Made by a program: the position numbers and the translations under genes. From Dehalococcoides mccartyi (GTDB lineage: Bacteria > Chloroflexota > Dehalococcoidia > Dehalococcoidales > Dehalococcoidaceae): a stretch of 64,000 nt of DNA. The notes beneath the pieces were generated by a model. That model saw only the letters and a program-made list of their open reading frames with translations. It was not told where the DNA came from and did not search any database. The stretch is from assembly GCF_001889305.1 (NCBI RefSeq), contig NZ_CP013074.1, positions 124,001 to 188,000 of the forward strand. Reading direction: 5' to 3'. Shown here in pieces: positions 46,380 through 62,742 of this stretch (its first letter is position 1; each line of letters begins with the position of its first letter).

Positions 46380-46455
46380 GGGGCCGTAGTTCACTTGGGA
46401 GAACGTTTGACTGGCAGTCAAAAGGTAGAGGGTTCGAATCCCTCCGGCTCCACCA
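46380..46455 (+). tRNA. tRNA-Ala (anticodon GGC)
   Basis: The 76 nt fold as a full cloverleaf: acceptor GGGGCCG/CGGCTCC, D stem GTTC/GAAC, anticodon stem TTTGA/TCAAA with loop CTGGCAG, T stem GAGGG/CCCTC with TTCGAAT. The anticodon is GGC (Ala, GCC codons). G3-U70 is present, the universal identity element for AlaRS. CCA is encoded. Its 3' half (46411-46455) forms part of the att repeat and is left intact by integration. Confidence 0.97.
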
Positions 46456-46468
46456 TAAAGCTAAAAGC
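46411..46468 (+). repeat. Left att site (58-bp direct repeat, 3' end of tRNA-Ala)
   Basis: CTGGCAGTCAAAAGG through CTAAAAGC is identical to 62685-62742. It runs from the anticodon loop to 13 bases past the CCA. The following 25 bases before the integrase start also resemble the region after the second copy (CGGTAGC), which shows related element ends. Confidence 0.95.
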
Positions 46469-46489
46469 ACCGCCGGTAGCCAAAAATGA

Positions 46490-47449
46490 ATGCTTTTAGA
46501 CCATTTAACTAGTTCCAGTTCCAACGAACAGTCCAAAGCTGAAACCTACCATTTAACTGATTTCAAAAACCTCTCCGGCAGGCTGAAAGCCTTTATCCTT
46601 ACGTGCAAAGTTGCCCGATTATCTCCGCATACTATCAAATACTACACTTATGCCCTTACTTCATTTTTAGGCTATTGCTCTACCTTGGGCATAAATGCAG
46701 TTGAGGAGATAGAGGCAAACCACGTCAGGCTTTACTTAGTCAAACTACAGGAGAGGAATAACCCGACCTCAGTACTTGATTACTACAAGGCTGTAAAGCG
46801 CTTCTTTAACTGGCTTATTGAGGAAGGCGTGCTTTCAAAAAGTCCCCTGGCCACCATTAAGCCGCCCCGGACAGAACAAAAAGTAATCCGGCCATTTACC
46901 AAACAGCAAATAGAAGATCTGCTTAATACCTGCGGAGATAGTCCAACCGGGTTGAGAAACCGGGCCATGATACTCACTATGCTGGATACCGGGCTGCGTG
47001 TTTCTGAAATGGCAGCTATCCAGCTAAAAGACGTAGATTTTGATAAGGAAACCATAATCGTAATGGGTAAGGGCGCTAAGCAACGTATAGTTCGCATTGG
47101 ACATAAAACCCAGGAATCTATCCTACGTTACCTGCTTACCAGGCAAGACGAATGCCCGGCACTCTGGCTTTCAACTACAGGCACTGGTCTTTCAACCGAA
47201 GGGATAAAAGTAGTAGTACGGGAATTGGGTAAAAGATCAGGAATTACTGGCGTAAGGTGCAGCCCCCATACTTTCCGGCATACCTTTGCTACTCAATCAC
47301 TTATAAACGGGGCAGGAGAATTTGAAGTTCAATCTTTGCTTGGCCATAGCACCTTAACCATGACAAAACGCTATACAGCGAGCTTAAGAAGTGAATATGC
47401 TGTTCAGGAACACAAAAAATTCAGTCCAGTGGATAATATGAGACTATAA
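46490..47449 (+). CDS. Tyrosine integrase/recombinase
   Basis: This 319-residue integrase starts 22 bases after the att repeat. The SAM-like N-terminal DNA-binding domain covers about residues 25-115 (LSPHTIKYYTYALTSFLGYC). The catalytic domain has R in LDTGLRVSEMA, K in GKGAKQRIVRI, H-x-x-R in HTFRHTFATQ, H in LLGHSTLTMT and the nucleophile Y in KRYTASL. All five catalytic residues are intact. A related but broken copy lies at 62767. Confidence 0.95.
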   Translation: MLLDHLTSSSSNEQSKAETYHLTDFKNLSGRLKAFILTCKVARLSPHTIKYYTYALTSFLGYCSTLGINAVEEIEANHVRLYLVKLQERNNPTSVLDYYKAVKRFFNWLIEEGVLSKSPLATIKPPRTEQKVIRPFTKQQIEDLLNTCGDSPTGLRNRAMILTMLDTGLRVSEMAAIQLKDVDFDKETIIVMGKGAKQRIVRIGHKTQESILRYLLTRQDECPALWLSTTGTGLSTEGIKVVVRELGKRSGITGVRCSPHTFRHTFATQSLINGAGEFEVQSLLGHSTLTMTKRYTASLRSEYAVQEHKKFSPVDNMRL

Positions 47450-47450
47450 T

Positions 47451-47972
47451 TTATTGATTGTTATCGATTCCTTTGTTACCAAGTAATTCAGCAGCTAAAG
47501 CTACTCCACCAAGTAGTGCTAGGCCAACAACTATAGTATTGGCTATCTCCATTTTTGTATTTGTATATTCTTTATATAGTTTTATCTTTCCCGAATGGCC
47601 ATTTGGACATTGTTGATAAGCAAAATGATACAAACTTACTGGTACACCACAATCACATTTGCCTATTTCTGTTTTTAATATTCTTTGTAGATGAGCTCTA
47701 GCACGTTCTGCCACAGTTAATTTCTCTTGTGCTACTCTAAGCTCAGTTTTTTCTTTCTCTAATTCAATTTGAAGATTTCTATTTATATTTTCTTGTTGTA
47801 TAAATTTATTCCGAATTTCTCTTAGTTTTTGTTGATTATCTGGTAATAATAGTCCTTGATTCAGTAAATCGACAATTATATCGCCTTTCTGTTTTCCGGA
47901 TAATTGAGCTAATTCAGTGATCTTTTCTTTAATTTCTTGGGGTATTCTAGCATAAATTGCAACGGTACTCAT
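47451..47972 (-). CDS. RHH-coiled coil-zinc ribbon-TM protein, unknown function
   Basis: This 173-residue protein has an N-terminal MSTVAIYARIPQEIKEKITE, a ribbon-helix-helix-like DNA-binding pattern (KGDIIVDLLNQGLLL as the second helix). A coiled coil (about 55-105) follows, then a four-cysteine cluster (CDCGVPVSLYHFAYQQCPNG) and a C-terminal TM segment (IVVGLALLGGVALAAELLG). The ATG at 47972 follows GGAGG at distance 11; the TTG at 47990 is an alternative. It is A+T-rich. It may tether DNA to the membrane, but this is inference. Confidence 0.72.
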   Translation of the reverse strand: MSTVAIYARIPQEIKEKITELAQLSGKQKGDIIVDLLNQGLLLPDNQQKLREIRNKFIQQENINRNLQIELEKEKTELRVAQEKLTVAERARAHLQRILKTEIGKCDCGVPVSLYHFAYQQCPNGHSGKIKLYKEYTNTKMEIANTIVVGLALLGGVALAAELLGNKGIDNNQ

Positions 47973-48098
47973 TTTCGTGATTTCCTCCAATATAGTAATA
48001 TCTATATCAATATAATATCATAATGTCAGAAATTAACAAGCATTAGCCTAATAACTACTTATTAAATATTTAATATGTTATGAAAAACACCCACTGTG

Positions 48099-48126
48099 TT
48101 GACAATTTACAAATATAATATATAGT
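48099..48126 (+). promoter_or_regulatory. Candidate promoter for the 57-residue ORF
   Basis: TTGACA (48099-48104), a 16-base spacer and TATAGT (48121-48126) precede the SD and ATG at 48170. Confidence 0.55.
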
Positions 48127-48355: not shown

Positions 48356-48850
48356 TTGTTTCTAAAATTCAAACCTTCCTCAAAGAAAGCTTCCAGTAGA
48401 CATGGCCCAAACAGGTTAAACGATTATATGTTCCAACATGAACGTCGGTTAGATGATTATGATTATTTCATCAATGATTATAATATTAACTGGGATACAT
48501 TAAGTTTTCATGATGGAATTAAGTTAATAATGCATTTAGAATGCACAAGTAATTTAGTGATAACTATTGAAAAATTCGCAAAAATAACATCTGATATGAT
48601 TGCTGGACAATATATTTATTTTGCTCAGACTCATACTTATTCTTATAACGTTTCAATAAGAGACATTGGAAATTGTTTTAGATACGATAACTGCCATAAG
48701 CATCGTAACCACCAAACTGAACACCATTTGCATGTATATTCACAGCCAGGTAAAGGTGAAAAAGATGGCAGCCCAATTTGTTTAGGAGATGACTGGCCGC
48801 ATATGCATGAGGTAATAGAAGATTCTATACATTACTTAGCTAGTATATAG
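48356..48850 (+). CDS. His/Tyr-rich protein of unknown function
   Basis: This 164-residue protein (TTG start at 48356) or shorter version (ATG 48428) follows the small gene after 12 bases. The C-terminal half is rich in His, Asp and Cys (CHKHRNHQTEHHLHVYSQ; GDDWPHMHEVIEDS), suggesting metal binding. There is no clear SD and no recognised family. The A+T-rich composition fits the element cargo. Confidence 0.5.
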   Translation: MFLKFKPSSKKASSRHGPNRLNDYMFQHERRLDDYDYFINDYNINWDTLSFHDGIKLIMHLECTSNLVITIEKFAKITSDMIAGQYIYFAQTHTYSYNVSIRDIGNCFRYDNCHKHRNHQTEHHLHVYSQPGKGEKDGSPICLGDDWPHMHEVIEDSIHYLASI

Positions 48851-48890: not shown

Positions 48891-50042
48891 CTATTTTATT
48901 AATTCGCCACCCAACTTAATCGCTTCTTCTACTATCCGTGGCAACTTCTCGTTATTCATACCGCCAACTTCTATCATCCGGTTTTGAACTTCAATTCTGA
49001 ATTCATCCGAGTTAAACCATTGTGCTGCTTCCTGATTTACCTGATTGGCAGCATGAATTGTGCCAGTTGATACACAGCAGAGGGCCGCAGCTGTCAGAAG
49101 TACACCTCTGGCTTGTCTCATAAGGTGATCATACCTACACTTTTTCTGTTTATATCTCAGTACTCCATAGAGTTCTCCGAAGAAGCTATAACCTTCTTCT
49201 ATTACATTCCACCAGTCTTTCACTTTCCACCTGTGGCGGTGACTATCATTACCCGGGGTTCTAATAGTAAGCCAGTCCTGGACGCAGTATCGCCAAATAT
49301 CGCTTATACGTTCTGTAAGAGACCAGAAATCATCAACACTCATTTCCTTGAGAAAATCACGCCTGCATTGAAATTCAACCCGGGTTACTGCGCTTACACC
49401 GTCCCAGCCATTGGCTGACCAAAGTGTTTGAAACCACTCTTTTTGTGAGATAATAACTTCCAGGCTTTTATCATATATCCGACTAATAATTGCACCCTGG
49501 CCGAAACGGTAGCCAGTATCCCTCTTGCCATTTACATAGTGTTCAGCCGGTAGGCTGCCGTAGTATTCAGTCTTGCCTCTGGCCCGGGTTACTACATCAT
49601 TAGCCAAGTTTATTTGGGGCATATCCATTTGCAGATCTATACACAGGTCACACCGGGAGACTTTATCACCGGTTATAATGGCCCAGGTGCTTAGCCAGTG
49701 TTTAAGGTCATATACAACGTTGCGTGCGTTGAAAGACCAAAGATATTCGGCCCTGAAGGTTACATATAATTCAGGATAGATCCGGCCATTCTCTGGCTTT
49801 CTGGCAATACAGATGCTTACATCGGCGTTTTCAAGCACCCATTCGTAGCCCTTAGCGCCTCTGGCATGGACTACAAAAGGCTTTCCGTACCAATCTATAC
49901 CTGTGCCTTTGCCGCCAAAGAGCTTTTCGCCGGCTTCTTCTTTGGCTTGCTCAAGGATTTTAAAGCTTTCGGGGTCTCTGTATCCTGCTACGTTAAAACC
50001 TATTACCAGACTATCTATTCCAGAACCAATAACTGTATACAT
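48891..50042 (-). CDS. Rolling-circle replication initiator (Rep_trans/RstA-like)
   Basis: This 383-residue protein contains the Rep_trans (PF02486) pattern: SRCDLCIDL (about 129-137; RxDxxxD), TGYRFG, RIYDKSLE (about 188-195, catalytic Tyr 190) and VTRVEFQ. It nicks one strand at the double-strand origin. The C terminus has a hydrophobic stretch (GVLLTAAALCCVSTG) unlike plain Rep proteins, possibly a membrane or dimer contact. A perfect hairpin lies just upstream at 50084-50116. This family serves many filamentous phages and small plasmids. Confidence 0.82.
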   Translation of the reverse strand: MYTVIGSGIDSLVIGFNVAGYRDPESFKILEQAKEEAGEKLFGGKGTGIDWYGKPFVVHARGAKGYEWVLENADVSICIARKPENGRIYPELYVTFRAEYLWSFNARNVVYDLKHWLSTWAIITGDKVSRCDLCIDLQMDMPQINLANDVVTRARGKTEYYGSLPAEHYVNGKRDTGYRFGQGAIISRIYDKSLEVIISQKEWFQTLWSANGWDGVSAVTRVEFQCRRDFLKEMSVDDFWSLTERISDIWRYCVQDWLTIRTPGNDSHRHRWKVKDWWNVIEEGYSFFGELYGVLRYKQKKCRYDHLMRQARGVLLTAAALCCVSTGTIHAANQVNQEAAQWFNSDEFRIEVQNRMIEVGGMNNEKLPRIVEEAIKLGGELIK

Positions 50043-50083: not shown

Positions 50084-50116
50084 GCGACCTCCCTGTTAGT
50101 AGGTGAGGGAGGTCGC
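50084..50116 (-). repeat. Perfect 11-bp inverted repeat before rep
   Basis: GCGACCTCCCT, an 11-base spacer, then AGGGAGGTCGC lies 42-74 bases upstream of the rep start. It may be the origin nick-site hairpin, an operator or a terminator of the upstream genes; no U-run follows. Confidence 0.7.
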
Positions 50117-50827: not shown

Positions 50828-50840
50828 GCTTTTACCTCTG

Positions 50841-51002
50841 GCGTTATTCTTAACGCCCTTTTTAAACTGTTCCCCCGACCTGAGTTTTCCAGTTTAGCCC
50901 TTGGTCAAGGCCTCGCCGCCCGGACCGGCTCTCGCCGGATCTTGCGGCTTGTTGCACAGCCTTGACTGGCAGGGCAACAGTAGAAACTGTTCAAGTCGGG
51001 GG
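50841..51002. other. Structured intergenic region, candidate packaging signal or origin
   Basis: Several nested inverted repeats are packed in about 160 bases between the methyltransferase and Zot-like genes: GCGTTA/TAACGC (50841-50856) and CCCCCGAC/GTCGGGGG (50872-50879 with 50995-51002). Within the latter lie GTCAAGGC/GCCTTGAC (50904-50911 with 50959-50966) and CCGGC/GCCGG (50925-50938). AAACTGTTC is directly repeated at 50864 and 50984. The layout resembles the hairpin-rich intergenic region of filamentous phages (origin plus packaging hairpin). Function is inferred from position and fold only. Confidence 0.6.
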
Positions 51003-51014
51003 ATGTTTTCATTT

Positions 51015-51560
51015 TTAATAGACTGTCTGCTTCGTGTCATATAGCTTGAACACTTCAGAGGCCGGTGCGATTTCAAGCAAATAAGGGTCTCCGCCAAACC
51101 GGCCATCTATGGTATAGACGACTATCCGGTCTCCGATTATTTCGGGCAGAAGTGACATTATGGTTGCTTCACGGAATATCAGGTCTACGCCCAGGCCTTC
51201 GTGCATGGTGTAAATAATCAGATTATCCAGTTTCATGGTCTGCCAGATGTTGACCAGAACCTGGCTTTGCTGCTTACCGGTGTATCCCCGGTGGCTGAAC
51301 AGCTGGTCTGCTTCGTCTATAAGTATCAGCCAGCCCCGCAGCTCTTCTTCTTTCATCCGGGCCAGGAAGTCTATTATTTCCGAGTTGCGCTGCTGCTCTA
51401 TGCCGTAAGAGGGAATAGAAACGTTAGAGATAACTTTGTCAGGTGTGAAATGGCCAAGTTTTATCTCATTAACAGCCAGGGCTACCATGCTGGCAGTCTT
51501 GCCGCAACGCATATAGCCCCGGATTTTTACTACTCCCTCTATTAGGCGGTCAGTTTCCAT
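51015..51560 (-). CDS. Zot-like/pI-type morphogenesis ATPase
   Basis: This 181-residue P-loop protein has Walker A GYMRCGKT (about 15-22) and Walker B GWLILIDEAD (about 76-85), the pattern of zonular occludens toxin and filamentous phage pI ATPases, which drive extrusion of the virion. No TM segment is present, unlike most pI proteins. The next upstream gene but one (51891) has one, so pI may be split in two. It precedes the structured intergenic region and is part of the leftward module. Confidence 0.72.
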   Translation of the reverse strand: METDRLIEGVVKIRGYMRCGKTASMVALAVNEIKLGHFTPDKVISNVSIPSYGIEQQRNSEIIDFLARMKEEELRGWLILIDEADQLFSHRGYTGKQQSQVLVNIWQTMKLDNLIIYTMHEGLGVDLIFREATIMSLLPEIIGDRIVVYTIDGRFGGDPYLLEIAPASEVFKLYDTKQTVY

Positions 51561-51563: not shown

Positions 51564-51890
51564 TTAAACCTTGCCGATTCCGAACTGGAAAAATCCCTGC
51601 TTCCGTTTTTCTTCCAGGGCTACCGCTTCATATTTGGCAACTGTGGCCGCCTGGTCTCTTACCAGAGTGTCAGCTGTATGGGCGTATCTTTCGCATTGGT
51701 CTGCAATCTGGTGAAAGCAGGAAATGCCAAGTACCTTAGATGTCATATGGCAAAGCTGTAGAGTCCTGGCCAAAGCTACCGGACAGTTGCGGTTAGTGGG
51801 TGAATATTCCAGCATCTGGCTGGAAACATTTTTATTCCCCAGCTGGCTGGGATGAATCCCGATTTTCTCCTGTTCTTCTAAATATGACAT
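51564..51890 (-). CDS. Phage module protein of unknown function (108 residues)
   Basis: This 108-residue soluble protein has no recognised domain. It sits between the TM protein (51891) and the Zot-like gene, 3 bases from the latter and 0 from the former, so it is translationally coupled and probably an assembly-module component. It has a Cys/His-rich middle (CHMTSKVLGISCFHQIADQC). Confidence 0.68.
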   Translation of the reverse strand: MSYLEEQEKIGIHPSQLGNKNVSSQMLEYSPTNRNCPVALARTLQLCHMTSKVLGISCFHQIADQCERYAHTADTLVRDQAATVAKYEAVALEEKRKQGFFQFGIGKV

Positions 51891-52469
51891 TTAACTGCCT
51901 CCAGCCGGGGGATTAGTCGGTATATAATCCCCTTCGGGTATTTCCGTGCCGTCAGAAGGATTGTCTGCCGGATTGTCAGGATAGACCGGATTATCCGGTA
52001 TGGTTTGTTCAGTGGCAGGCTCATTACTGCCGAGATTGAATATTTTGTCCTTGTTCTGAAGTACAAATAAGCCGCCTACAAAGATAGCCACTACCAGGAG
52101 AATGGTCATAAAGTTGATGGACATCTTCTTGTTAAGCCCTTTTATCTCCTTGAGGGCGTCAGAAGTAATCTTGCCGTTTACTGCCTGGTCAAACATATTA
52201 CCGTCAAACATGGCTTGTCCGGTTACTACATCGTAATCCACCGCCGAGCCAAAGACATGGGCGAATAGCGGCCTATTCCATAACTGAGGCACCCGGTATT
52301 CTTCGGCGTGTTCATGATAAACATGATGCTTGCCATTGAGACGGTATTCAAAATGCACACCCTTGTCTGTTACATCGGTAACCAGCCCTTTTTCCAACAG
52401 CCGTCTATCCATATAATTCACCAGTACATAACACCGGTTTGAGGGCCGGAATATTTCCAAATCACGCAT
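51891..52469 (-). CDS. Single-span assembly protein, possible pI membrane partner
   Basis: This 192-residue protein has a cytoplasmic N terminus (about 1-125), one TM segment (FMTILLVVAIFVGGLFVL) and a Pro/Asp-rich extracellular tail ending PTNPPAGGS. The topology (N-in, one TM, short outside tail) matches the membrane part of filamentous phage pI. ATG 52469 is 8 bases after AAGAGG; the GTG at 52478 is an alternative. The start overlaps the preceding gene by 8 bases. Confidence 0.7.
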   Translation of the reverse strand: MRDLEIFRPSNRCYVLVNYMDRRLLEKGLVTDVTDKGVHFEYRLNGKHHVYHEHAEEYRVPQLWNRPLFAHVFGSAVDYDVVTGQAMFDGNMFDQAVNGKITSDALKEIKGLNKKMSINFMTILLVVAIFVGGLFVLQNKDKIFNLGSNEPATEQTIPDNPVYPDNPADNPSDGTEIPEGDYIPTNPPAGGS

Positions 52470-52692
52470 TGTCTTCACCTCTTATTAAAATCATCATGGC
52501 CCAGACAAAACACCAGGCCATGCCAACCGCTATGCCTATCTTGGCAAACTGGGGTATAGCTTCATTGGGCAGCAGTGACATCAGGAGAAAGCCGCAGGCA
52601 CTCAGCAGAAGCCAGCTGCCCCTTGCCAGTACTGCCCCGATAAACAGCACCGCGAATACCACCAGGGTTATTATGAGTCCGATATCTATCAT
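52462..52692 (-). CDS. Small membrane protein, phage module
   Basis: This 76-residue protein has three hydrophobic stretches (IGLIITLVVFAVLFIGAVLA; WLLLSACGFLLMSLL; IGIAVGMAWCFVWAMMILI) and a charged tail. It overlaps its neighbours by 1 and 8 bases. Small minor coat proteins (pVI, pVII, pIX types) are membrane-resident before assembly. Sequence identity to those was not testable. Confidence 0.65.
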   Translation of the reverse strand: MIDIGLIITLVVFAVLFIGAVLARGSWLLLSACGFLLMSLLPNEAIPQFAKIGIAVGMAWCFVWAMMILIRGEDNA

Positions 52693-52988
52693 TACTCTGT
52701 ACCCCTCAGCAGTTTGAGTACGATATAAACCAGGATATAGCCGATAGGAGTAAAGAGTATGATGTTAAACAAAACGGGCACGCCTTCCAGCTGGAAGGTT
52801 ACAGCGCCCCACAGGAAGGCTACGCTGTCTCCTATTTTGGTAAAGGCATCGACTATACCCGTTGGCTGTTCTATGGGTACTCCGCCGGTGTAAGAGCCAA
52901 CTCCGCCAATGCCGAAGTGGGCGCCCACCAGGCTAAGCAGCATAACCAGCAGTACGGATAAAATCAGCAGCCCGTTATTGCTGAACAT
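52692..52988 (-). CDS. Small membrane protein, phage module
   Basis: This 98-residue protein has an N-terminal TM (LLILSVLLVMLLSLVGAHF), a Gly-rich loop and a C-terminal hydrophobic part (VLFNIILFTPIGYILVYIVL) with basic end. It overlaps both neighbours by one base. A pVI-like minor coat role is a guess based on position next to the tip-like protein. Confidence 0.65.
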   Translation of the reverse strand: MFSNNGLLILSVLLVMLLSLVGAHFGIGGVGSYTGGVPIEQPTGIVDAFTKIGDSVAFLWGAVTFQLEGVPVLFNIILFTPIGYILVYIVLKLLRGTE

Positions 52989-54574
52989 TACCCGTCACCA
53001 CCCATCAGCCGCTTGCCGCTGCCCATCTGCCAGACTACAAACGCACCCAGGGCAGCCAGTAAAAGCACCAGCCAGATATCTATCCACTGCATGGCAATAA
53101 ATGCCCCAACCACCAGCAGGGGAGTTACGATTGCCATTATGCGTACTTTCCAGCACAGGGCTATGGAAGCAGCTACGCAGGTAAGCATAATCAGCCAGCG
53201 GACACCGCTATCCTGCTCACCGATTTTACCTATCGTATCGGGTATTATCTGGAGTAAGTCACCGATAGTGGGAGTTTCAGGCGGAGGTACATAGAAAGCC
53301 CCATTTACATAAGTAACTATGATATAAGGCTCTATCTTTACCGTATCTTCGCCCAGTGTTATATCTGAACAGCCGGGGCTTACCCATTCGTCAATATAGG
53401 CTTCACCCGGATTCCAGAGTACATTATTGCTGCTGTCATAAGAGGGATAGCCCAGCATGGCATCTTCCAGAATTACCCCTATGCGTAAATTGTCATTGTC
53501 ATCTAAATAGGGGGTAAGCCAGGAGACTTGATTAGCCGAATCCCATTCTGTGGGTACTAAGTCCCAGCTGTGCAGGCCGTTTGCCCCTTTATCTGCATCT
53601 GTTTGACCTGCCGGGTAATATTGGGTTGAGTTATAGGCATTGGCCATAAACCAGCGCCCGTCAGTCTGGCTTTCCAGATTTGCCGGGTTAAATACCAGTA
53701 CCGCTTTGGTCTTATGGTAGATAGTGCCTCCCTGGTGCAGGACTACCTCAATACTGCGTATCTTGGAGTTATCCAGCAGCCCTTCAAGGTTGAAGTACAG
53801 AATATTTCGGTAATAATCATCTAAAGACATCAAACCGGTCATTCTGGTTACGCTGAAATACAGGTCATAAGCGCCTGTTTCCCAGACAGTACTGCCATCA
53901 TCATTTATTAAAGTACCGCCACTGTAAGGGTTATTGGTGGCACAATAAAACTTGTAGTAGTTTGAGGATGTGCCTGTACTGCACTGGCCTACTATCACAT
54001 ACTTAAGCCCTTGTTCTATGGGTAAGTTGCTCATAGCCCAGGTGTAGTTTGTGGTAGAGGTGCTTATTTGTGCCTGGGGTATGACTACGCTGCCTATCAG
54101 CGCACCTAATGAGGTAGACGTATTATAGGAATACAGCTTTAGTGTCAGGTCACCCGGTGTGCCTGTTTTAGACACCTTTAAAGTTATATACTGCAGTCCG
54201 CCCGAACCTAAAGCGGTAAAGGATTGCCCCCGTTTATATTGCCCGTATATCATGACGCTGTCTGAAGTACTGGCCGTATTTTGGGCATCAGTTACACTGC
54301 CGGCTGTAGAGCAGGTATAGCCGTTATAAAAGGTACTGCCCCCTTCACCCAGCATTATTGAACTGGCTATTGAGGTCTGGAAAGGGTTGCCGGATACGGC
54401 CAAATCAGACCAGGTAAGGTTCAGATTATCTGCATAATATTCATAGGCCGAGGTTGCTGTAAACGTCTTGGTTTGCAGCGTTTCAGCAGCAGATACCGTA
54501 CCGGGCAGCATGCTAGCCAGCATTACCGCCAGGCTGGATATTACCCTGATTATTCGTTTAAGGTTTGTCTTCAT
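52988..54574 (-). CDS. Secreted, membrane-anchored tip/adsorption-like protein
   Basis: This 528-residue protein has a signal peptide (RIIRVISSLAVMLASMLPG, cleavage near VSA/AE). The ectodomain has Ser/Thr-rich beta-sandwich character (about 30-440, including GQSFTALGSGGLQYITLKV). Three C-terminal hydrophobic segments follow (WLIMLTCVAASIALCW; IMAIVTPLLVVGAFIAM; WLVLLLAALGAFVVW). The position before the coat-like gene fits a pIII-type host-binding protein. The triple TM anchor is unusual for pIII, which has one. Confidence 0.7.
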   Translation of the reverse strand: MKTNLKRIIRVISSLAVMLASMLPGTVSAAETLQTKTFTATSAYEYYADNLNLTWSDLAVSGNPFQTSIASSIMLGEGGSTFYNGYTCSTAGSVTDAQNTASTSDSVMIYGQYKRGQSFTALGSGGLQYITLKVSKTGTPGDLTLKLYSYNTSTSLGALIGSVVIPQAQISTSTTNYTWAMSNLPIEQGLKYVIVGQCSTGTSSNYYKFYCATNNPYSGGTLINDDGSTVWETGAYDLYFSVTRMTGLMSLDDYYRNILYFNLEGLLDNSKIRSIEVVLHQGGTIYHKTKAVLVFNPANLESQTDGRWFMANAYNSTQYYPAGQTDADKGANGLHSWDLVPTEWDSANQVSWLTPYLDDNDNLRIGVILEDAMLGYPSYDSSNNVLWNPGEAYIDEWVSPGCSDITLGEDTVKIEPYIIVTYVNGAFYVPPPETPTIGDLLQIIPDTIGKIGEQDSGVRWLIMLTCVAASIALCWKVRIMAIVTPLLVVGAFIAMQWIDIWLVLLLAALGAFVVWQMGSGKRLMGGDG

Positions 54575-54985: not shown

Positions 54986-55042
54986 TTTCTTTTTCACCAC
55001 CTTTCTTTTTCGCATATCTCAAAGCTGCGCAGGCTTTAAAAC

Positions 55043-55473: not shown

Positions 55474-55731
55474 TTACGCAGTACGGCTTGCCCACATCAG
55501 CTTTAGCTCCTTTAATGAATAACCGCCGGTAGCCACTCCTTTGTTATTTTCTATATTTGAAGCTTTCGCTTTGCGGTCTCGTATCTCCTGAAGGGTAGGC
55601 AGCCGGGGTCTTCCCCCAAGCTTGCCCAGTTCCTTCATATGTTCCCGGCCGTACAGGGCTACTGTTTTAAGTCCACCCAGGCGGCCAGCCTCTTTATTTG
55701 TTAGTTTATTATGTTTATTTTTAATAACCAT
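55474..55731 (-). CDS. KGG-like small protein
   Basis: This 85-residue basic protein begins MVIKNKHNKLTNKEAGRLGG and contains the GxLGG-type repeats EAGRLGG and LGKLGGRPRLP. These resemble the KGG/YciG motif. It is the first gene of the leftward module, facing the repressor. It may be an early regulator; no data. Confidence 0.6.
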   Translation of the reverse strand: MVIKNKHNKLTNKEAGRLGGLKTVALYGREHMKELGKLGGRPRLPTLQEIRDRKAKASNIENNKGVATGGYSLKELKLMWASRTA

Positions 55732-55884: not shown

Positions 55885-56529
55885 ATGGAAATGAACATTG
55901 GTGAAAAAATTAAGTCATTAAGGCAAATCCGTGGTCTCACGCAAGGACAATTATCAATAAAATCAGGATTACCCCGGACAACTATTGCCAGTATTGAGAA
56001 TAAAATTTCGGCTAGACCAAGTGCCGCAGTATTGGTTAAGTTGGCTACAGCATTGAACGTTGATGTTTCTGAACTATATGAAGCAGCTGGAATATATGCT
56101 ACAGAAAGCGGTAAACGTCACATAGAAACGCCTGATGAGATTTTGGAACGCCTAAGATTGGCTTCGCCCATAGCCGTACCGGTTTATACAGATTTCGTCA
56201 TTCATGCCGGTGATAATGTTGAAGCCCCGATTGAATATATCTACCTGGCCCGGCCTAAAGCCACTGGCAAGAATATAGAGGCTTACCTAATAAAAGGGCA
56301 GTGCATGGAACCAGATATCCGGGACGGGGATATTGCCATTGTTGACCGCGACACAGTCCCGGAAAAAGGCAATATAATCCTCTGCCTGATAAACAATGAG
56401 ATTGTTATCGGCCGCTACCTAATGGACAAAGAAGGCAAGCCCTATATCCAGAATGGCCACGGCAAACATGACCTGAAAGAGTGCCAGGCCACAGCCGTAG
56501 TTATTAACATATCCAGAAATATGAGATAA
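55885..56529 (+). CDS. XRE/cI-type repressor with S24-like domain
   Basis: This 214-residue protein has an N-terminal HTH (about 8-60; LTQGQLSIKSGLPRTTIASI) and a C-terminal LexA/cI-like S24 domain. The catalytic serine motif (GxSM) is GQCMEPDIRDGD, with Cys 140 in place of Ser. The usual Lys position reads VIGRYL. Self-cleavage is doubtful, so the domain may only dimerise. It faces the leftward phage genes, as an immunity repressor would. No SD precedes the ATG at 55885. Confidence 0.85.
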   Translation: MEMNIGEKIKSLRQIRGLTQGQLSIKSGLPRTTIASIENKISARPSAAVLVKLATALNVDVSELYEAAGIYATESGKRHIETPDEILERLRLASPIAVPVYTDFVIHAGDNVEAPIEYIYLARPKATGKNIEAYLIKGQCMEPDIRDGDIAIVDRDTVPEKGNIILCLINNEIVIGRYLMDKEGKPYIQNGHGKHDLKECQATAVVINISRNMR

Positions 56530-56542: not shown

Positions 56543-57448
56543 ATGACCAATTCTAAAAGTGATAATAGGGAATACTCAGCTACAAGTCTAGCTAAAGAGC
56601 TCAATATTACACCTCAAGATACATTTAATAATCTCCAGGCACTTGGCTTTATAGTAAGAAAAGATAGCACTTGGGAATTAACTCCTTTAGGTATTTCTAA
56701 AGGTGGAATATATAAGCATAGTGAAAAATTTGGGCGCTATATTTCTTGGCCAGAATCTATTAAAGACTTTTTGTCAGATGATAAGCCAGGACAAAGCAAT
56801 TCAGATATTACTTCCACAATTATAGGTAAGCATTTCAATGTCCCTGTCACCAGGATCAATTCTATCCTTTCAGAATTAGGTTGGATAAAAAAGCACCCCG
56901 TAATGGGTTGGGAAATCACTGCTCAAGGTAAACGCTTCGGTGGTGTGCAGCATAAATTCAGCGCTACCGGCGCTCCCTTCGTTAAATGGCCAAATGAAAT
57001 TCTCAACAACAAAATACTTGTTATGAACGTTGAAGAAACGCAAGGCCAAGTAAGTAAAGTAGGTAGTGATAATAGTCATTCCACAGATGATCAGAGCTTT
57101 AGAGAAAAATTTAAAGCGGAATTCAGAGTCAAAGACGGGCATTACGTTCGTTCAAAATCTGAAATGATTATTGATAACTGGTTATACGATTCTAAAATTA
57201 TTCATGCCTATGAAAGAAAACTTCCAATAGAAGAAGATCTTTATTGTGACTTCTATATTCCTACAGAAAAAGTCTATATAGAATATTGGGGATCAGAAGA
57301 AGCCGCTTATTTAACTAGAAAGAAGAAGAAGCTTGAAGTTTACAATAAATATAACTTTAAGCTAATTGAATTGACTGAAAAAGATATAGCCAATATTGAT
57401 GATGTATTGCCTGCCAAGTTACTGGATTATGGTATTGCGGTTGAATAA
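56543..57448 (+). CDS. Winged-helix + PD-(D/E)XK nuclease-like protein
   Basis: This 301-residue protein has two tandem winged-helix-like blocks (about 10-60, 75-135) and a C-terminal nuclease-like region. Key pieces are RSKSEMIIDNWLYDSKI (about 203-219), CDFYIPTEK (D about 235) and VYIEYWGS (E about 247), followed by a Lys-rich helix. This resembles PD-(D/E)XK with E-x-W in place of ExK. It starts 13 bases after the repressor and is A+T-rich. It may cut foreign DNA or be regulatory. Confidence 0.65.
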   Translation: MTNSKSDNREYSATSLAKELNITPQDTFNNLQALGFIVRKDSTWELTPLGISKGGIYKHSEKFGRYISWPESIKDFLSDDKPGQSNSDITSTIIGKHFNVPVTRINSILSELGWIKKHPVMGWEITAQGKRFGGVQHKFSATGAPFVKWPNEILNNKILVMNVEETQGQVSKVGSDNSHSTDDQSFREKFKAEFRVKDGHYVRSKSEMIIDNWLYDSKIIHAYERKLPIEEDLYCDFYIPTEKVYIEYWGSEEAAYLTRKKKKLEVYNKYNFKLIELTEKDIANIDDVLPAKLLDYGIAVE

Positions 57449-57702: not shown

Positions 57703-60700
57703 TTGGAGACAGCATATCGATTCCCCGAAATATTCGCCATCAATGAATCGCACAATGGAAACTTGATACAGCAGTTACTATCGCCTGGTTTTGAAATTCT
57801 AGTTGGTATTGAGCCATTAGAAGATTCTAGAGTAAAAGGTTTTGTTCTTAAACCTAGAATATCTGGTGCTAGCGAGATCCTTGTAATTACAAATGCAGCT
57901 AAGGTACCTGAGAGATTCGATAGAGTTTTGAGAGTTAGACTAAAAACTCCGACAGCCTCTTCTACCTTGTCTAGTGAATATAAATCAGTTAAATGGATAA
58001 AGCATCCTAAATTATCACAGGTTCCTGCTTCCCCTATAGACTATCAATCTAGAATACACAAGACATTGGAATCTTGGCAGGGAAAATTCCAGTATATACA
58101 AGAGGTTAGAGAAAAGAATATTAGAGGTCTTCGTTTGCCCCAAATTGGAGCAATTCATGCAGTTCATTCTCACTGGGCTGTAAGTAATCGCCCAGCCACT
58201 ATTGTAATGCCAACAGGAACAGGAAAGACAGAAACAATGCTATCAGTTCTTGTGTCAACTCCGTGTCAAAGATTATTAGTAATTGTACCCACAGATGCTT
58301 TAAGATCCCAATTATTTGATAAGTTCTTGACTTTAGGCAAGTTGAAAGAAATCGGTGCAATTTCAAATGATGCTTCCTATCCTATTGTTGGTCTCTTAAG
58401 ACATAAACCAAGAAATTTAACTGAAATAGATGATTTCTTTAGCAAATGCAACGTAGTTATCACGACCATGAGTATAGTTGGTCAATGTTCCAATAAAATG
58501 AAAGAGCAAATCGCAAGCCATTGCAAAGTTTTGTTCATCGATGAAGCGCACCATATTGCAGCAGAAACTTGGAGTGAATGTAAAGAAAAATTTGCATCAA
58601 GAAAAATAATTCAATTCACTGCGACACCTTATCGAAACGATGACAAACTCGTTGGGGGAGACATTATTTTCAATTATCCATTAACAAAAGCTCAAGAAGA
58701 AGGATATTTCACGGCAATCAATTTCAAATCCGTGATTGAGTACGATCCTTCTAAATCAGATTTGATCATTGCTGAAGCAGCTATTCAACAGCTTATTGAG
58801 GATCGAAAACATTTTGATCATATTTTGATGGCTCGCGTAAAAAGTGTTGATAGGGCAAAGCAGGTTTTTAAGTTATATGAAAAGTATTCGGAGTTTAATC
58901 CGGTTCAGCTACACACGGGTATAAAATCTGTCAAGGAGCGGGAACTAATCCGAAACAAAATAATTGAGGGGAAATCGAGTATTGTAGTATGTGTTGACAT
59001 GTTGGGAGAAGGATTCGATCTCCCTCGATTAAAAATAGCAGCATTTCACGATGTTAAGAAAAGCTTGCCTATTACACTTCAATTAGTGGGGAGATTTACC
59101 CGTTTTATGCCTGATCTCGGAGAGGCAACTGTTATAGCAAATACTGCGCAATTGGACGTTGAAGAAGAACTTAAAAAGCTTTATTCTCAAAATCCCGATT
59201 GGAATGATATCCTAAGAAGAACTAGCCAAGGATTAGTGCAAAAACAAATTGATTTGCAAAAATTCATCAGCAATTTTGGCACTGATTGTAAGCAGATACC
59301 GTTGCAGAATCTTCGTCCTGCGATGAGTGCGGTCATTTATCATACAAAGTGTGAAGATTGGAAACCAGAAGATTATTGTTCAGGAATTCCGGGTATTGGC
59401 TCACTTGAACATATTCACCATGAGATCAATAAATATGATGATACACTTGTCATTGTGACCGCGAAAAAGGTACCTATTGATTGGATAAATGTTGGAGATA
59501 TTTTTAGCTGGGAATGGGAACTTTACATTTTATATTGGAACAGAGAACAAAAACTTCTTTTCATACATAGCTCAACGAACAATGGTTATTTTAAAAAATT
59601 AGCGGAAGCTGTAGCCGGTGAAGTGGAACTAGTTAATGGACCGAGAGTATTTCATTGCTTTTCTGGAATAAATCGTTTAAGGCTCCAGAATGTAGGCCTA
59701 ATCGAGCAACTTGGACGACTTATTAGATATACAATGAGAGCTGGTTCTGATGTTGAGTCTGGATTGACTGAAGCACAGACACGAAATGTTATTAAATCTA
59801 ATATTTTTGGAATTGGTTATGAAGATGGTAGTAAAGTAAGTATTGGGTGCTCGTACAAAGGTAGAATTTGGTCCAGGAACATCACAAACATTGAGGCATT
59901 AACTAAATGGTGTAGCCATATTGGAAGCAAGATCTTAGATAATACCGTAAATGCAGAAAGTGTGTTGAAAGGTACATTAGTGCCTAAATCTATTTCTCAG
60001 AGACCTAATATTATGCCTATTGCTATAGAATGGCCTCTAATTATGTATAAAGAACCAGAAACGACATATGATCTTATTTTTGATAGTGAAACCATACAAC
60101 CTTTATATAATTTTGATATAAGATTAACAAATCCAACAGAATCAGGGGAATTAAAATTTGAAGTATGCTCAGACAGTAAGCGATTAGAATTTTTGCTCAG
60201 GTTATATAGTAAAAACGGTTTACCTGATTTTGCTATATCGGTTATTGGAGATCAAAAAATTCTTATCAGGCAAAGAGGTGGATATATTCCTTTGAAGGAT
60301 TATTTTAATACTAATCCCCCTGTAATATGGTTTGCGGATGGTTCATCTTTGGAAGGTAATAGCTTTACAAAATTGAATAGTGAGTATGCTCAGTTTCCAT
60401 CTCAAAACATACTGACATGGGATTGGGAAGGCACCACTATTACAAAAGAAATCCAAGGGATTTCCAAAGAACAAGATTCTATTCAGTATAAAGTAATTCA
60501 AAAATTAATAGAAGACAATTGTTATGAAGTCATTTTTAATGACCACGGCACCGGTGAATGTGCAGATGTTGTGGCTATTAAGTCAAAAGATAACACAATT
60601 TGTGTAGAGTTTTATCATTGTAAACACTCAAAATCATCCAGGCCGGGTGCAAGAATTGACGATTTATATGAAGTATGTGGACAGGCTCAGAAAAATATTC

Positions 60701-60987
60701 ATTGGATGGAAAATCCGACTTATTTATTCTCACATCTTTTAGCTCGTGAACCTATAAAAAATAGGGGGACGGAAGTAAGTAGATTCGAATTTGGTAATAA
60801 AAATATACTCCTAGAATTCAAAGAAAAAATTAGTAGAACTCATGAAATGAAATTAGAAATATTTGTCGTGCAACCAGGGTTATCAAAATCACAAGTATCG
60901 AATATTCAACTAGGACTATTAAGTGTAACTGAAAATTATTTGATGCAAACTTACAATTTATTCTTTAAGGTTATCGCAAACTCTTGA
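57703..60987 (+). CDS. SF2 helicase with C-terminal nuclease-like motif (candidate defence)
   Basis: This 1094-residue protein has a helicase core: Walker A MPTGTGKTETML (170-176 region), DEAH (280-283), TATPYR (about 306) and LVGRFTR (about 460). The N terminus (1-130) and middle part are unassigned. Near the C terminus ADVVAIKSKDNTICVEFYHC, then K, gives a D-x(n)-ExxxxK-like pattern (about 954-973) like PD-(D/E)XK nucleases. It is A+T-rich and lies inside the prophage with unknown neighbours. Relatives act in restriction or anti-phage defence. TTG 57703 follows GAGGAAGGA. Confidence 0.8.
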   Translation: METAYRFPEIFAINESHNGNLIQQLLSPGFEILVGIEPLEDSRVKGFVLKPRISGASEILVITNAAKVPERFDRVLRVRLKTPTASSTLSSEYKSVKWIKHPKLSQVPASPIDYQSRIHKTLESWQGKFQYIQEVREKNIRGLRLPQIGAIHAVHSHWAVSNRPATIVMPTGTGKTETMLSVLVSTPCQRLLVIVPTDALRSQLFDKFLTLGKLKEIGAISNDASYPIVGLLRHKPRNLTEIDDFFSKCNVVITTMSIVGQCSNKMKEQIASHCKVLFIDEAHHIAAETWSECKEKFASRKIIQFTATPYRNDDKLVGGDIIFNYPLTKAQEEGYFTAINFKSVIEYDPSKSDLIIAEAAIQQLIEDRKHFDHILMARVKSVDRAKQVFKLYEKYSEFNPVQLHTGIKSVKERELIRNKIIEGKSSIVVCVDMLGEGFDLPRLKIAAFHDVKKSLPITLQLVGRFTRFMPDLGEATVIANTAQLDVEEELKKLYSQNPDWNDILRRTSQGLVQKQIDLQKFISNFGTDCKQIPLQNLRPAMSAVIYHTKCEDWKPEDYCSGIPGIGSLEHIHHEINKYDDTLVIVTAKKVPIDWINVGDIFSWEWELYILYWNREQKLLFIHSSTNNGYFKKLAEAVAGEVELVNGPRVFHCFSGINRLRLQNVGLIEQLGRLIRYTMRAGSDVESGLTEAQTRNVIKSNIFGIGYEDGSKVSIGCSYKGRIWSRNITNIEALTKWCSHIGSKILDNTVNAESVLKGTLVPKSISQRPNIMPIAIEWPLIMYKEPETTYDLIFDSETIQPLYNFDIRLTNPTESGELKFEVCSDSKRLEFLLRLYSKNGLPDFAISVIGDQKILIRQRGGYIPLKDYFNTNPPVIWFADGSSLEGNSFTKLNSEYAQFPSQNILTWDWEGTTITKEIQGISKEQDSIQYKVIQKLIEDNCYEVIFNDHGTGECADVVAIKSKDNTICVEFYHCKHSKSSRPGARIDDLYEVCGQAQKNIHWMENPTYLFSHLLAREPIKNRGTEVSRFEFGNKNILLEFKEKISRTHEMKLEIFVVQPGLSKSQVSNIQLGLLSVTENYLMQTYNLFFKVIANS

Positions 60988-61006
60988 TAATTAAAACCTA
61001 ATAATT

Positions 61007-61558
61007 CTAGTTTTGTCTATTGAGTATTAGGTATATCGAAAATGCTAAAGTTGCTATTGTTACCCATAAAATGGGTGGTCCAAGTGGTTCTAATTTAAAG
61101 GATAAAATACATAGTGTAATCACTAAAGATATAAAGCATACTGTTTCCATTATGTGTAGGCTTGTGGCCCTTTTACCTATTGATTTACAACTTAGTCGAA
61201 CTTTATTGGTAAAATCTACTATTTCCCAAATTAAGAACACTATACTAACTATAGGTATTATCCATAAGATGCTATATTGTTTTGTTGTATCAGCTATGCT
61301 TATAGTCGCACTAAGAAATGCGACTAATGAAACTATATATAGGGGTGTCAGAAAAAGGTCATTTATTTTCGCGTATATTTGCCTAAGTAATCTTATTGGT
61401 AATTGCCCTAAAATTGATATAAAACCTACTGCAAGAAAGGCTACTCCCGCTACTTTTATACTACTATTAATTAATTGACTCCCCTGATCAATAAGAAATA
61501 TTCCAGACGAAATATATGCTAATATTGTTAATCTTATGTCTATAATGGAATTATTCAA
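61007..61558 (-). CDS. Multi-span membrane protein, unknown
   Basis: This 183-residue protein has about five hydrophobic segments (ILAYISSGIFLIDQG; VAGVAFLAVGFISILG; LTPLYIVSLVAFLSATI; ILWIIPIVSIVFLIWEIV; TVCFISLVITLCIL). Start is a TTG at 61558 with no clear SD. It lies between the helicase and the 310-residue protein, on the opposite strand from the helicase. It may be an effector in a defence set; this is inference. Confidence 0.5.
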   Translation of the reverse strand: MNNSIIDIRLTILAYISSGIFLIDQGSQLINSSIKVAGVAFLAVGFISILGQLPIRLLRQIYAKINDLFLTPLYIVSLVAFLSATISIADTTKQYSILWIIPIVSIVFLIWEIVDFTNKVRLSCKSIGKRATSLHIMETVCFISLVITLCILSFKLEPLGPPILWVTIATLAFSIYLILNRQN

Positions 61559-61592
61559 CTTATTATGTGCTCGATTTTCATTAAAATAATTC

Positions 61593-62525
61593 TTATATTA
61601 TTTCGGAAAGTAGAGAGAGTATAGAAGCAGATTGGTGTATAGCAAACCGTGCATAACTGCGATTACATTGGTATTCTCCTGGGTGATTTGCGCCTGAGAA
61701 AGAGCCCCACAGTGTCGTTAATATTTTGGCTACACGTTGTGAATTATCTTCCCCGATCGTTGGCATCAGTATTTGAGTTTGCATCGTTTTTATTTTAGCT
61801 GAAAAGCTATTATCGTTTGGACTCGCATCTTTTTTATGTAATTTTAAAGCTAATTTATCTACTACTGCCTCAAGAGCTTTTCTTGAATGCACTATTATGT
61901 TTTTGTAATCTTCTTCAGTATCGGCTGTTTCAAAAATTTTTACTGCACGTGTTAGTTCTGTTATTGCGTAACTAAATTCTTGTTTGAAATTGTTCGGAAT
62001 TTGAATTGTAACTGAGTATAGGTTTTCTAATCCCAAGCCAGATAATACTCTTTCTTCCCAAATAGATTTAGGTAGAGATAACACGATTGCTACATTTCTA
62101 GCAACAGTACTATGTAAATATGAGGCGATTTCGGTTGTATAACCTGCTCCTCCAACAGCTAATATACAACTAATGTCTAATATAAACTCAATATTTTTGC
62201 CTTTGCGTTGGTTTTCTATGAAATTTAATTTTTCCTCTGAAAGAGGAACATCGAAAGAGGAACAAGCATTATTATTATAAATCATGCTCGTTTCAGATAT
62301 TTTCACCCATTTAGATTCATGATAGATTTTAAGGTTCACATTGAAAAATAGCGGAGTGAAATATATATTCATTGAAGAAAATTCAGGATTATTTTCAATT
62401 ATAAATGGAATTCGAATATTGTTATCATAATCATTCAGATTATTTGAACATATTTCATTCTCATTTATTTTGATTCTTTTTATAAGCTTTCCTTGGTCCC
62501 CACTAGTATAAAAATTTGCGTCCAT
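61593..62525 (-). CDS. Unknown protein with abortive-infection-like C terminus
   Basis: This 310-residue A+T-rich protein starts MDANFYTSGDQGKLIKRI, with GAAGGGA before ATG 62525. The N-terminal half is beta-rich. The C-terminal 110 residues are helical (DYKNIIVHSRKALEAVVDKL; WGSFSGANHPGEY; ARFAIHQSASILSLLSEII), resembling helical domains found at the end of abortive-infection proteins. It is 34 bases upstream of the membrane-protein gene, so the two may form one operon next to the helicase. The match is at pattern level only. Confidence 0.6.
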   Translation of the reverse strand: MDANFYTSGDQGKLIKRIKINENEICSNNLNDYDNNIRIPFIIENNPEFSSMNIYFTPLFFNVNLKIYHESKWVKISETSMIYNNNACSSFDVPLSEEKLNFIENQRKGKNIEFILDISCILAVGGAGYTTEIASYLHSTVARNVAIVLSLPKSIWEERVLSGLGLENLYSVTIQIPNNFKQEFSYAITELTRAVKIFETADTEEDYKNIIVHSRKALEAVVDKLALKLHKKDASPNDNSFSAKIKTMQTQILMPTIGEDNSQRVAKILTTLWGSFSGANHPGEYQCNRSYARFAIHQSASILSLLSEII

Positions 62526-62684
62526 CTTAATCCCTTCATATATGTTTTAATGCGAATAAGAGCTTAACATAATAACATTGTCGTATATTTTACTAGAATT
62601 TCGTAAAATATCAAGATTATTATTCATCTCAATTGAGTAAAGATTAAAAGGAGTTAGTGCTTCGGTTGCTTAGTGCTTCTATAG

Positions 62685-62742
62685 CTGGCAGTCAAAAGGT
62701 AGAGGGTTCGAATCCCTCCGGCTCCACCATAAAGCTAAAAGC
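62685..62742 (+). repeat. Right att site (58-bp direct repeat)
   Basis: This is a perfect copy of 46411-46468, i.e. the 3' 45 bases of tRNA-Ala plus 13. The upstream half of the tRNA is missing here, as expected of an att duplicate. Two TTAGTGCTTC repeats lie just upstream at 62654 and 62670. It is also the left end of the next element. Confidence 0.95.

What the first reader, a model, noticed from the sequence alone, without database searches (positions are those of the whole stretch)
46411..62742. Inovirus-like prophage in a Dehalococcoides-type genome, integrated at tRNA-Ala(GGC)
Seen: a 58-bp direct repeat from the tRNA 3' half, an intact integrase at the left edge, and a leftward module with SSB, coat-like, tip-like, small TM, Zot-like ATPase and Rep genes. 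Known: this set is that of filamentous phages (Inoviridae); Zot/pI ATPase is their hallmark. Inference: a chronic, non-lytic virus in an organism with a single membrane, which would need no pIV secretin, and none is seen.
Basis: partly seen in the sequence, partly recalled or inferred. Interest (0 to 1): 0.88.

Follow-up and report, generated by a model that had tools for sequence, protein, structure and literature searches.

The report
Filamentous-phage-like provirus in Dehalococcoides-type bacterium
A 16-kb stretch inserted at a tRNA gene of a Dehalococcoides-type bacterium looks like the dormant genome of a thread-shaped virus of the kind that leaves its host without killing it; only one closely similar element turned up in the related genomes searched.

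Summary
In detail: a 16,274-bp element bounded by an exact 58-bp copy of the tRNA-Ala(GGC) 3' half, with an intact tyrosine integrase and a leftward SSB–coat–tip–small-TM–ATPase–Rep operon. The Rep's only phage relatives at E<=1e-7 are Thermus filamentous phages (Paulinoviridae). A profile of the two Dehalococcoidales ATPases matches pI/Zot assembly ATPases (95% probability) and not tailless-phage packaging ATPases (10%). A second Dehalococcoidales MAG carries the same gene series. A GC-rich hairpin with the Rep_trans/MOBT nick motif CTAA lies 41 bp before rep. Family is open: Inoviridae is not shown and Paulinoviridae unproven. The same Rep and hairpin also occur in Dehalococcoidales elements without recognised assembly genes, so replicon and assembly modules have probably been exchanged. 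Low-GC cargo includes a PDC-S69 defence candidate. No virion, excision or expression was tested. Another Chloroflexota inovirus is already in IMG/VR, so this is a new variant of a known kind.

The parts
46380..46455 (+). tRNA-Ala(GGC), integration target
   Evidence: ARAGORN, Rfam RF00005
46411..46468 (+). attL, 58-bp direct repeat in the tRNA 3' half
   Evidence: only two copies of its 33-nt core in the genome
46490..47449 (+). tyrosine integrase, intact
   Evidence: PF00589 2e-36
47451..47990 (-). possible ribbon-helix-helix protein with C-terminal TM, accessory
   Evidence: weak only: RHH_1 E 0.093; TM by hydropathy
48356..48850 (+). TumE-toxin-like protein, accessory
   Evidence: PF20126 E 4.6e-4, below cut-off
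48891..50042 (-). Rep, rolling-circle initiator (pII-like, Rep_trans type)
   Evidence: PHROG endonuclease 4.6e-10; tblastn to Thermus filamentous phages, E to 4e-13; alignment
50084..50116 (-). GC-rich hairpin (11-bp stem, 11-nt loop with CTAA): candidate double-strand origin / nick site
   Evidence: motif as described in PMC9371924
50177..50827 (-). short C5-cytosine DNA methyltransferase-like protein, perhaps degenerate or atypical
   Evidence: PF00145 1.7e-5, over cut-off; PADLOC DruM 9.3e-9
50828..51014 (-). strongly structured intergenic region, candidate packaging signal or single-strand origin
   Evidence: DNA fold -46.5 kcal/mol, z -6.6
51015..51560 (-). Zot/pI-like assembly ATPase, 181 aa, no room for a C-terminal TM
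   Evidence: hhalign 95.1% to pI/Zot set; Pfam AAA at cut-off, Zot below it; hydropathy
51564..51890 (-). small soluble protein upstream of the ATPase
   Evidence: positional counterparts in L013, L141, L156; no sequence support
51891..52478 (-). bitopic protein, soluble N-part, one TM, Pro-rich tail; possible separate membrane part of pI
   Evidence: position and topology only
52462..52692 (-). small TM protein, minor-coat candidate
   Evidence: three hydrophobic segments; no sequence match to the L013 counterpart
52692..52988 (-). 98-aa TM protein, pVI-like minor-coat candidate
   Evidence: homologue in L013, Z 11.9
52988..54574 (-). 528-aa tip/adsorption-like protein, signal-like segment and C-terminal TM cluster
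   Evidence: C-part homologous to L013 tip, Z 5.3; topology
54653..55015 (-). major-coat candidate, two hydrophobic segments
   Evidence: L013 counterpart, Z 3.9; topology
55043..55435 (-). SSB
   Evidence: PF00436 8.5e-16; L013 homologue Z 12.1
55474..55731 (-). small protein, first gene of the leftward operon
   Evidence: weak match to an ORF near rep in L016, E 8.5e-4
55885..56529 (+). HTH + S24 peptidase-like repressor, divergent from the operon
   Evidence: HTH_3 7e-12, Peptidase_S24 2.8e-9
56543..57448 (+). PDC-S69 defence-candidate protein (cargo)
   Evidence: PADLOC 3.4e-102
57703..60987 (+). 1094-aa ResIII-type helicase (cargo)
   Evidence: PF04851 1e-24
61007..62525 (-). two cargo proteins without family
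62685..62742 (+). attR, second copy of the 58-bp repeat

Best explanation
A temperate filamentous-phage-like (Tubulavirales-like) provirus. Proposed cycle: the integrase inserts and excises a 16.3-kb circle at tRNA-Ala(GGC), the insertion leaving the tRNA intact. When the S24-type repressor is lifted, the leftward operon is expressed. Rep nicks the CTAA hairpin next to its gene and makes single-stranded circles by rolling-circle replication, which SSB coats. Membrane-inserted coat subunits replace SSB while the Zot-like ATPase, probably with the adjacent bitopic protein, drives extrusion through the single cell membrane; the 528-aa protein forms the adsorption tip. No secretin is needed. About 6 kb of low-GC cargo, including a defence candidate, rides along. 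Shown here: sequence homologies, gene order, repeats, hairpin. Inferred: every dynamic step.
For: Exact 58-bp tRNA-derived repeats and intact integrase. Rep: 6 of 50,697 phage records hit, 5 of them Thermus filamentous-phage records, E 1e-7 to 4e-13, the sixth a Pseudomonas phage at E 0.1; 22 invariant columns over 10 Reps, start Met included, one row partial. ATPase: hhalign 95.1%, E 3.1e-8, against the M13, B5, phiOH3 and Zuza27 assembly ATPases and Pf3 ORF301, taken as its pI, against 9.7% for PM2/PRD1-type ATPases; D-E, R, D and R positions invariant over 7 sequences. A Dehalococcoidales MAG (G124 = L013/L021, title) has the series in the same order; sequence support by shuffling for ssb, coat, tip, p98, ATPase and rep. 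Same relative order coat-tip-minor coat-ATPase-Rep in phage B5. Hairpin with the Rep_trans/MOBT nick motif. Minor-coat and tip topology.
Against: Pfam Zot and Rep_trans below curated cut-offs. Neither ATPase aligns above chance with the phiOH3 ATPase one to one (Z 0.3-0.5). The tip matches no phage record and no IMG/VR relative was confirmed; the coat has no family hit under E 0.1 and was not searched further. Coat assignment rests on size, position and topology; its C-terminus carries few basic residues. 16.3 kb exceeds the ~5-15 kb given for inoviruses in PMC6813254. Close Rep relatives lie in elements without recognised assembly genes, and the CTAA hairpin is rare in other Rep loci (1 of 82). 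The S24 catalytic positions look altered. The two structure models were too poor to use.
Confidence: 0.85

Rival explanations
1. An integrative mobilizable or conjugative element with a MOBT-type relaxase (the Rep) and a few membrane proteins, moved by conjugation rather than as a virion.
For: MOBT relaxases and Rep_trans initiators are related and share the nick hairpin (PMC9371924); three Dehalococcoidales loci without recognised assembly genes (L011, L012, L015) carry the same Rep and hairpin beside another type of integrase.
Against: No conjugation ATPase, coupling protein or other T4SS family among 19 element proteins scanned with Pfam; the 181-aa ATPase matches pI/Zot by profile; the gene order is that of filamentous phages. 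A faint T4SS_pilin hit (E 0.019) of the L013 coat is below cut-off.
Confidence: 0.08
2. A tailless, membrane-containing icosahedral virus (corticovirus-like), which also has rolling-circle replication, a small packaging ATPase and many small membrane proteins.
For: PM2 combines a nicking protein, a 218-aa ATPase and several small structural proteins.
Against: hhalign against PM2/PRD1/L140 ATPases only 9.7% over 16 columns; no capsid family hit; the large structural protein has a signal-like segment and C-terminal TMs. Caution: the PM2/PRD1/L140 set itself matches the Zot set at 95.5% over 49 columns.
Confidence: 0.03
3. A defective, decaying provirus that no longer forms virions.
For: Repressor cleavage residues look altered (by eye); the methyltransferase is short; the previous occupant of the site is broken.
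Against: All module genes are open; ssb to ATPase lie with gaps of at most 78 bp and several have purine-rich ribosome-binding-like stretches by eye; GC is 46-48% over 49-55 kb, near the 50% of the flank.
Confidence: 0.2

Closest known systems
Thomixvirus phiOH3 / phiOH16 and Zuza27 (Thermus filamentous phages; phiOH3 and phiOH16 in Paulinoviridae)
   Same: Homologous Rep; order coat-tip-minor coat-ATPase; GC-rich TAACA hairpin inside rep
   Different: 5.7-6.8 kb; SSB gene after Rep and without a Pfam SSB hit; no tRNA integrase (transposase in phiOH16 and Zuza27); no tip similarity found; ATPase 316-318 aa against 181
Bifilivirus B5 (Paulinoviridae, Propionibacterium)
   Same: Gene order coat-tip-minor coat-Zot-Rep, no annotated secretin
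   Different: Rep_1 family Rep, no match to the window Rep; 5.8 kb
Chloroflexota inovirus in G632 (L141; IMGVR_UViG_2540341237_000001)
   Same: Same phylum; 186-aa Zot ATPase preceded by a 106-aa soluble, a 77-aa TM and a 201-aa bitopic protein
   Different: Rep_1 Rep, NlpC/P60 domain in a tip-like protein, a 130-aa protein without family between ATPase and Rep; accessory proteins not alignable
MOBT/Rep_trans elements (ICEBs1, Tn916, ICESt3, pT181)
   Same: CT'AA nick motif in the loop of a GC-rich hairpin, as described in PMC9371924
   Different: They carry conjugation genes or are plasmids; coat or assembly genes are not known for them (recalled)

Membership tests
Tubulavirales (filamentous phages, inoviruses in the wide sense) | pI/Zot-type assembly ATPase, the only good candidate for a universally conserved gene according to PMC6813254 | tested here: met
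   hhalign 95.1%; but Pfam Zot 16.9 bits, below the 20.3 cut-off
Tubulavirales (filamentous phages, inoviruses in the wide sense) | Rolling-circle Rep related to phage pII-type Reps | tested here: met
   origin-type hairpin
Tubulavirales (filamentous phages, inoviruses in the wide sense) | Short membrane-inserted major coat and secreted tip with C-terminal TM | tested here: inconclusive
   topology fits; no homology to known coats or tips found
Tubulavirales (filamentous phages, inoviruses in the wide sense) | Genome ~5-15 kb (PMC6813254) | tested here: not met
   16.27 kb between repeats; about 7-10 kb without cargo; size is typical rather than strictly defining
Tubulavirales (filamentous phages, inoviruses in the wide sense) | Circular ssDNA in a filamentous virion, release without lysis | not testable with these tools
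   needs culture
Paulinoviridae | At least two orthologous proteins shared with members (PMC8497307 passage) | tested here: inconclusive
   Rep shared with Thomixvirus; ATPase only by profile; tip none found
Inoviridae | Gram-negative host, adsorption to pili (abstract of PMC8491893 as shown in the listing) | tested here: inconclusive
   no secretin family hit in 19 proteins; Dehalococcoides-type host (relatives named), its single membrane from general knowledge; adsorption untested
MOBT ICE/IME | Rep_trans-type relaxase with CTAA hairpin | tested here: met
   Pfam Rep_trans itself below cut-off
MOBT ICE/IME | Conjugation machinery on the element (ICE) | tested here: not met
   no T4SS family
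Corticoviridae / tailless double-jelly-roll viruses | PM2/PRD1-type packaging ATPase | tested here: not met
   hhalign 9.7%

The most novel reading that the evidence does not exclude
A phage-integrative-element hybrid: the replicon of Dehalococcoidales MOBT-type integrative elements (Rep, CTAA origin) has acquired a filamentous-phage export cassette specific to Chloroflexota, in which the assembly protein pI is split into a minimal soluble ATPase and a separate bitopic membrane protein, so that the same ssDNA intermediate that other elements conjugate is here extruded as a virion from a cell without peptidoglycan (host trait recalled).
Probability: 0.25. Interest if true: 0.75.

Novelty: new variant of a known kind. 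Interest (0 to 1): 0.58.

Why it matters
Dehalococcoides carries out the final detoxification of chlorinated solvents and, from general knowledge, has no routine genetics. An ssDNA provirus that excises and is extruded without lysis would be a natural vector (phagemid) and a plausible carrier of genes between strains. It also offers a test of how filamentous phages cross a single-membrane envelope, and of how readily rolling-circle integrative elements and filamentous phages exchange replicons.

Tried and rejected
Structure prediction of the ATPase (pLDDT 41) and tip (pLDDT 30): too poor, no fold search run. PDB profile search: A7 hit 2r2a at 1e-5, but the profile of the two Dehalococcoidales ATPases alone hit nothing at E<=1, so that hit came from adding the Clostridiales row and is not used. 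Single-sequence ATPase against phages: no match at E<=1. IMG/VR scans: ATPase, single-sequence Rep and tip gave no confirmed relative; the Rep profile gave 5 loci, not shown to be inoviruses here.

ATPase searches in genomes: single sequence 2 of 151 relatives; profile A1 own genome only of 393 class genomes, own and G124 of 156 order genomes. Pfam Zot over 400 phylum and 393 class genomes gave 18 and 8 genomes, 21 different ones, the own genome not among them, mostly within open frames of 340-908 aa. I fetched the places of six of the 21 and read five; G632 was the only clear inovirus; G206 (L145) was fetched and not read, the other 15 were not looked at. Profile A11 over 340 phylum genomes: 7 genomes, of which G166 and G181 were newly read and G570, G655, G758 not.

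Homology of the p76, p195 and p108 proteins between relatives was tested and not supported by shuffling. Rep tree: window next to L011 with weak support (87/69); whether the two coat-bearing Reps form one clade is unresolved. A CTAA hairpin stands in only 1 of 82 other Rep loci (0.2 expected from shuffles; of four control words one also occurs once) and not in L014, L016 or, in this exact form, the Thermus phages. The hydropathy scan for TMs is a rough one: at its threshold it also misses the segment 254-272 of M13 pI, recalled as a TM (score 1.31), so 'no TM' for the phiOH3 and B5 ATPases (1.17 and 1.03) is not evidence; the window ATPase has only 0.46 after residue 150.-type alignment of the two tips was made only for the structure job.
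Full report
The element. The window lies at 124001-188000 of a single-contig genome of 1.52 Mb. Named members of the same order or class among the hits are Dehalococcoidales/Dehalococcoidia MAGs, and the contig lengths of the two other genomes in the genus are, from memory, those of Dehalococcoides mccartyi strains, so 'Dehalococcoides-type' is fair. tRNA-Ala(GGC) is at 46380-46455. Its 3' half recurs at 62685-62742: 58 bp exact, 92% over 78 bp. A 33-nt core of the repeat occurs only twice in the genome. The spacing of the repeats is 16,274 bp. In both other genomes of the genus (2 of 2) the same tRNA, downstream of the same flank (a cysS-like gene by eye; 90% and 87% identical), is followed at once by a different element that starts with a serine-recombinase-like gene (by eye). 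After the right repeat stands an integrase interrupted by one in-frame stop, then what reads as chromosome. The site looks like a reused hotspot.

Genes. Pfam gives a clear integrase (2e-36), SSB (8.5e-16), S24-type repressor and ResIII helicase. PADLOC gives PDC-S69 for the 301-aa protein (3.4e-102). GC is 46-48% over 49-55 kb (rep to coat), 42% at 55-57 kb, and 32-37% over the right-hand cargo and the left accessory genes, against about 50% in the left flank, so the element is a mosaic.

Rep. Pfam Rep_trans is weak (E 0.07), but PHROGs gives an endonuclease family at 4.6e-10. tblastn against 50,697 phage records finds 6: five Thermus filamentous-phage records (E 1e-7 to 4e-13) and one Pseudomonas phage at E 0.1. 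phiOH3 and phiOH16 are classified in Paulinoviridae. Forty-one bp upstream of rep, on the coding strand, is a perfect 11-bp GC-rich hairpin whose 11-nt loop holds CTAA. According to the abstract and passages that I read of PMC9371924, MOBT relaxases and Rep_trans initiators nick at CT'AA in the loop of a GC-rich hairpin. Of the eight genomes with a Rep match among 151 relatives I examined seven loci; the eighth (G110, a 57-residue fragment with a stop) was dropped. The same hairpin is beside or within rep in 5 of these 7 (window, L011, L012, L013, L015; absent in L014, L016), but in only 1 of 82 other Rep loci. The Thermus phages have a related GC-rich hairpin with TAACA inside rep.

ATPase. 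One to one the sequence is too divergent (Zot 16.9 bits, cut-off 20.3). A profile of the two Dehalococcoidales ATPases against five filamentous-phage assembly ATPases (M13, B5, phiOH3, Zuza27, and Pf3 ORF301 taken as its pI) gives 95.1%, E 3.1e-8 over 121 columns. Against PM2, PRD1 and a Dehalogenimonas-like packaging-type ATPase it gives 9.7%. The two reference sets match each other at 95.5% over 49 columns, so the superfamily is shared and the discrimination rests on the better match of A1 to the Zot side. Seven aligned sequences keep the Walker A lysine, D-E, and R, D, R positions. One-to-one shuffling gives window against M13 pI Z 3.5-3.9 and B5 2.7-3.0 but phiOH3 0.3; L013 against B5 3.3-4.1 but M13 0.1-0.3 and phiOH3 0.3-0.5. 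The protein ends soon after the ATPase domain: its best 19-residue hydropathy after residue 150 is 0.46, against 1.31 in M13 pI and 2.46 in Pf3.

A relative. G124, a Dehalococcoidales MAG (title), carries the series SSB-coat-tip-TM-TM-bitopic-small soluble-ATPase-Rep in this order; the window has the methyltransferase-like gene between ATPase and Rep besides. Shuffle tests of every pair (200 shuffles) give on the diagonal ssb Z 12.1, coat 3.9, tip N-part 3.5, tip C-part 5.3, p98 11.9, ATPase 17.7 and Rep 134.7. Three pairs have no sequence support: p76 0.0, p195 1.2, p108 -0.1. Five off-diagonal pairs reach 2.6-3.6, so the coat and tip N-part values alone would be weak. The order agrees with phage B5 (coat-tip-minor coat-Zot-Rep) and, apart from where the circle is opened and the place of SSB, with the Thermus phages.

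Wider setting. The ATPase profile finds only the own genome in 393 class genomes, and the own genome and G124 in 156 order genomes. Elsewhere in the phylum G632 holds an inovirus with Zot (2.1e-7), Rep_1 (1.5e-12) and an NlpC/P60 domain in a tip-like protein; its ATPase is identical to that of an 11,750-bp IMG/VR contig, and the stretch held of that contig lies in the G632 stretch. There too, a 201-aa bitopic, a 77-aa TM and a 106-aa soluble protein precede a 186-aa ATPase; a 282-aa ATPase in G166 (L156) is preceded by a 346-aa TM and a 140-aa soluble protein. The soluble and bitopic proteins of the four loci do not align above chance (Z at most 1.9), so a Chloroflexota-type split assembly protein is a hypothesis from position and topology.

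Modularity. L011, L012 and L015 carry the same Rep and hairpin with a different integrase type and no recognised assembly genes. L014 has a related integrase (38% identical) at a tRNA-Ala(GGC), with Rep and a repressor and no blastp match to any other module protein in the 12.2 kb held. In the Rep tree the window Rep sits nearest L011 (45% identity, support 87/69), and L013 is not its sister, with weak support (81/40). Exchange of replicon and assembly modules is likely but unproven.

Literature. No paper in the held library has both inovirus and Dehalococcoides. Wider searches listed none on a filamentous phage of Dehalococcoides: 7 of 7 listed; 40 of 872; 12 of 12; 30 of 90; I saw titles and starts of abstracts. 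PMC3462421 (passages) reports a Siphoviridae-like Dehalococcoides prophage. PMC6813254 (passages and section 9) reports inoviruses in nearly all bacterial phyla and several families in monoderm hosts; its main text has no word beginning with 'Chloroflex', and I did not see its supplements or figures. So inoviruses of Chloroflexota may already be counted there. PMC10061712 (abstract and outline) shows inovirus secretion by Enterocloster. PMC4763002 and PMC11437467 (passages) describe the Thermus phages.

Verdict. A filamentous-phage-like provirus is the best reading (0.85). Family placement is open: Rep links it to Thomixvirus, the ATPase only by profile, and for coat and tip the searches made found nothing known. 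Candidate origin, cargo and integration history are now located. Whether it is alive is untested.

Noticed in passing
window 62767-63765: Second tyrosine integrase directly after attR, interrupted by one in-frame stop: probably the remnant of an earlier occupant of the same tRNA site.
   Followed up: partly
window 55885-56529: S24-type repressor reads GQCMEP where the serine nucleophile is expected and has no lysine at the expected second catalytic position (positions recalled, by eye), so SOS self-cleavage is doubtful; the repressor in L016 also has Cys.
   Followed up: no
window 56543-62525: Low-GC cargo: PDC-S69 defence candidate, 1094-aa ResIII helicase and two family-less proteins, perhaps one defence module.
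   Followed up: partly
L140 (G010:C1:786000-800000), 6775-7356: In a genome of the same family, a 193-aa Zot/A32-like ATPase resembling PM2/PRD1 packaging ATPases (Z 6.5-7.5) near a 192-aa protein and a serine-recombinase-like protein: possibly a tailless dsDNA provirus.
   Followed up: partly
L156 (G166:C42:23000-38000): Dehalococcoidia locus with a 282-aa phiOH3-like ATPase (Z 5.6-6.9), a 158-aa protein with what looks like an internal duplication of a coat-like TM unit, and a 1148-aa signal-bearing protein: possibly a second, larger filamentous-virus lineage.
   Followed up: partly
L074 7875-8603: Clostridiales bacterium GWB2_37_7 carries a Rep relative and a 242-aa Zot (PF05707 7.4e-13) on one locus: probably another inovirus.
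   Followed up: partly
L112, L113 (G002, G001): The same tRNA-Ala(GGC) in both other Dehalococcoides-type genomes is followed by a serine-recombinase-like element with the same junction sequence in both.
   Followed up: partly
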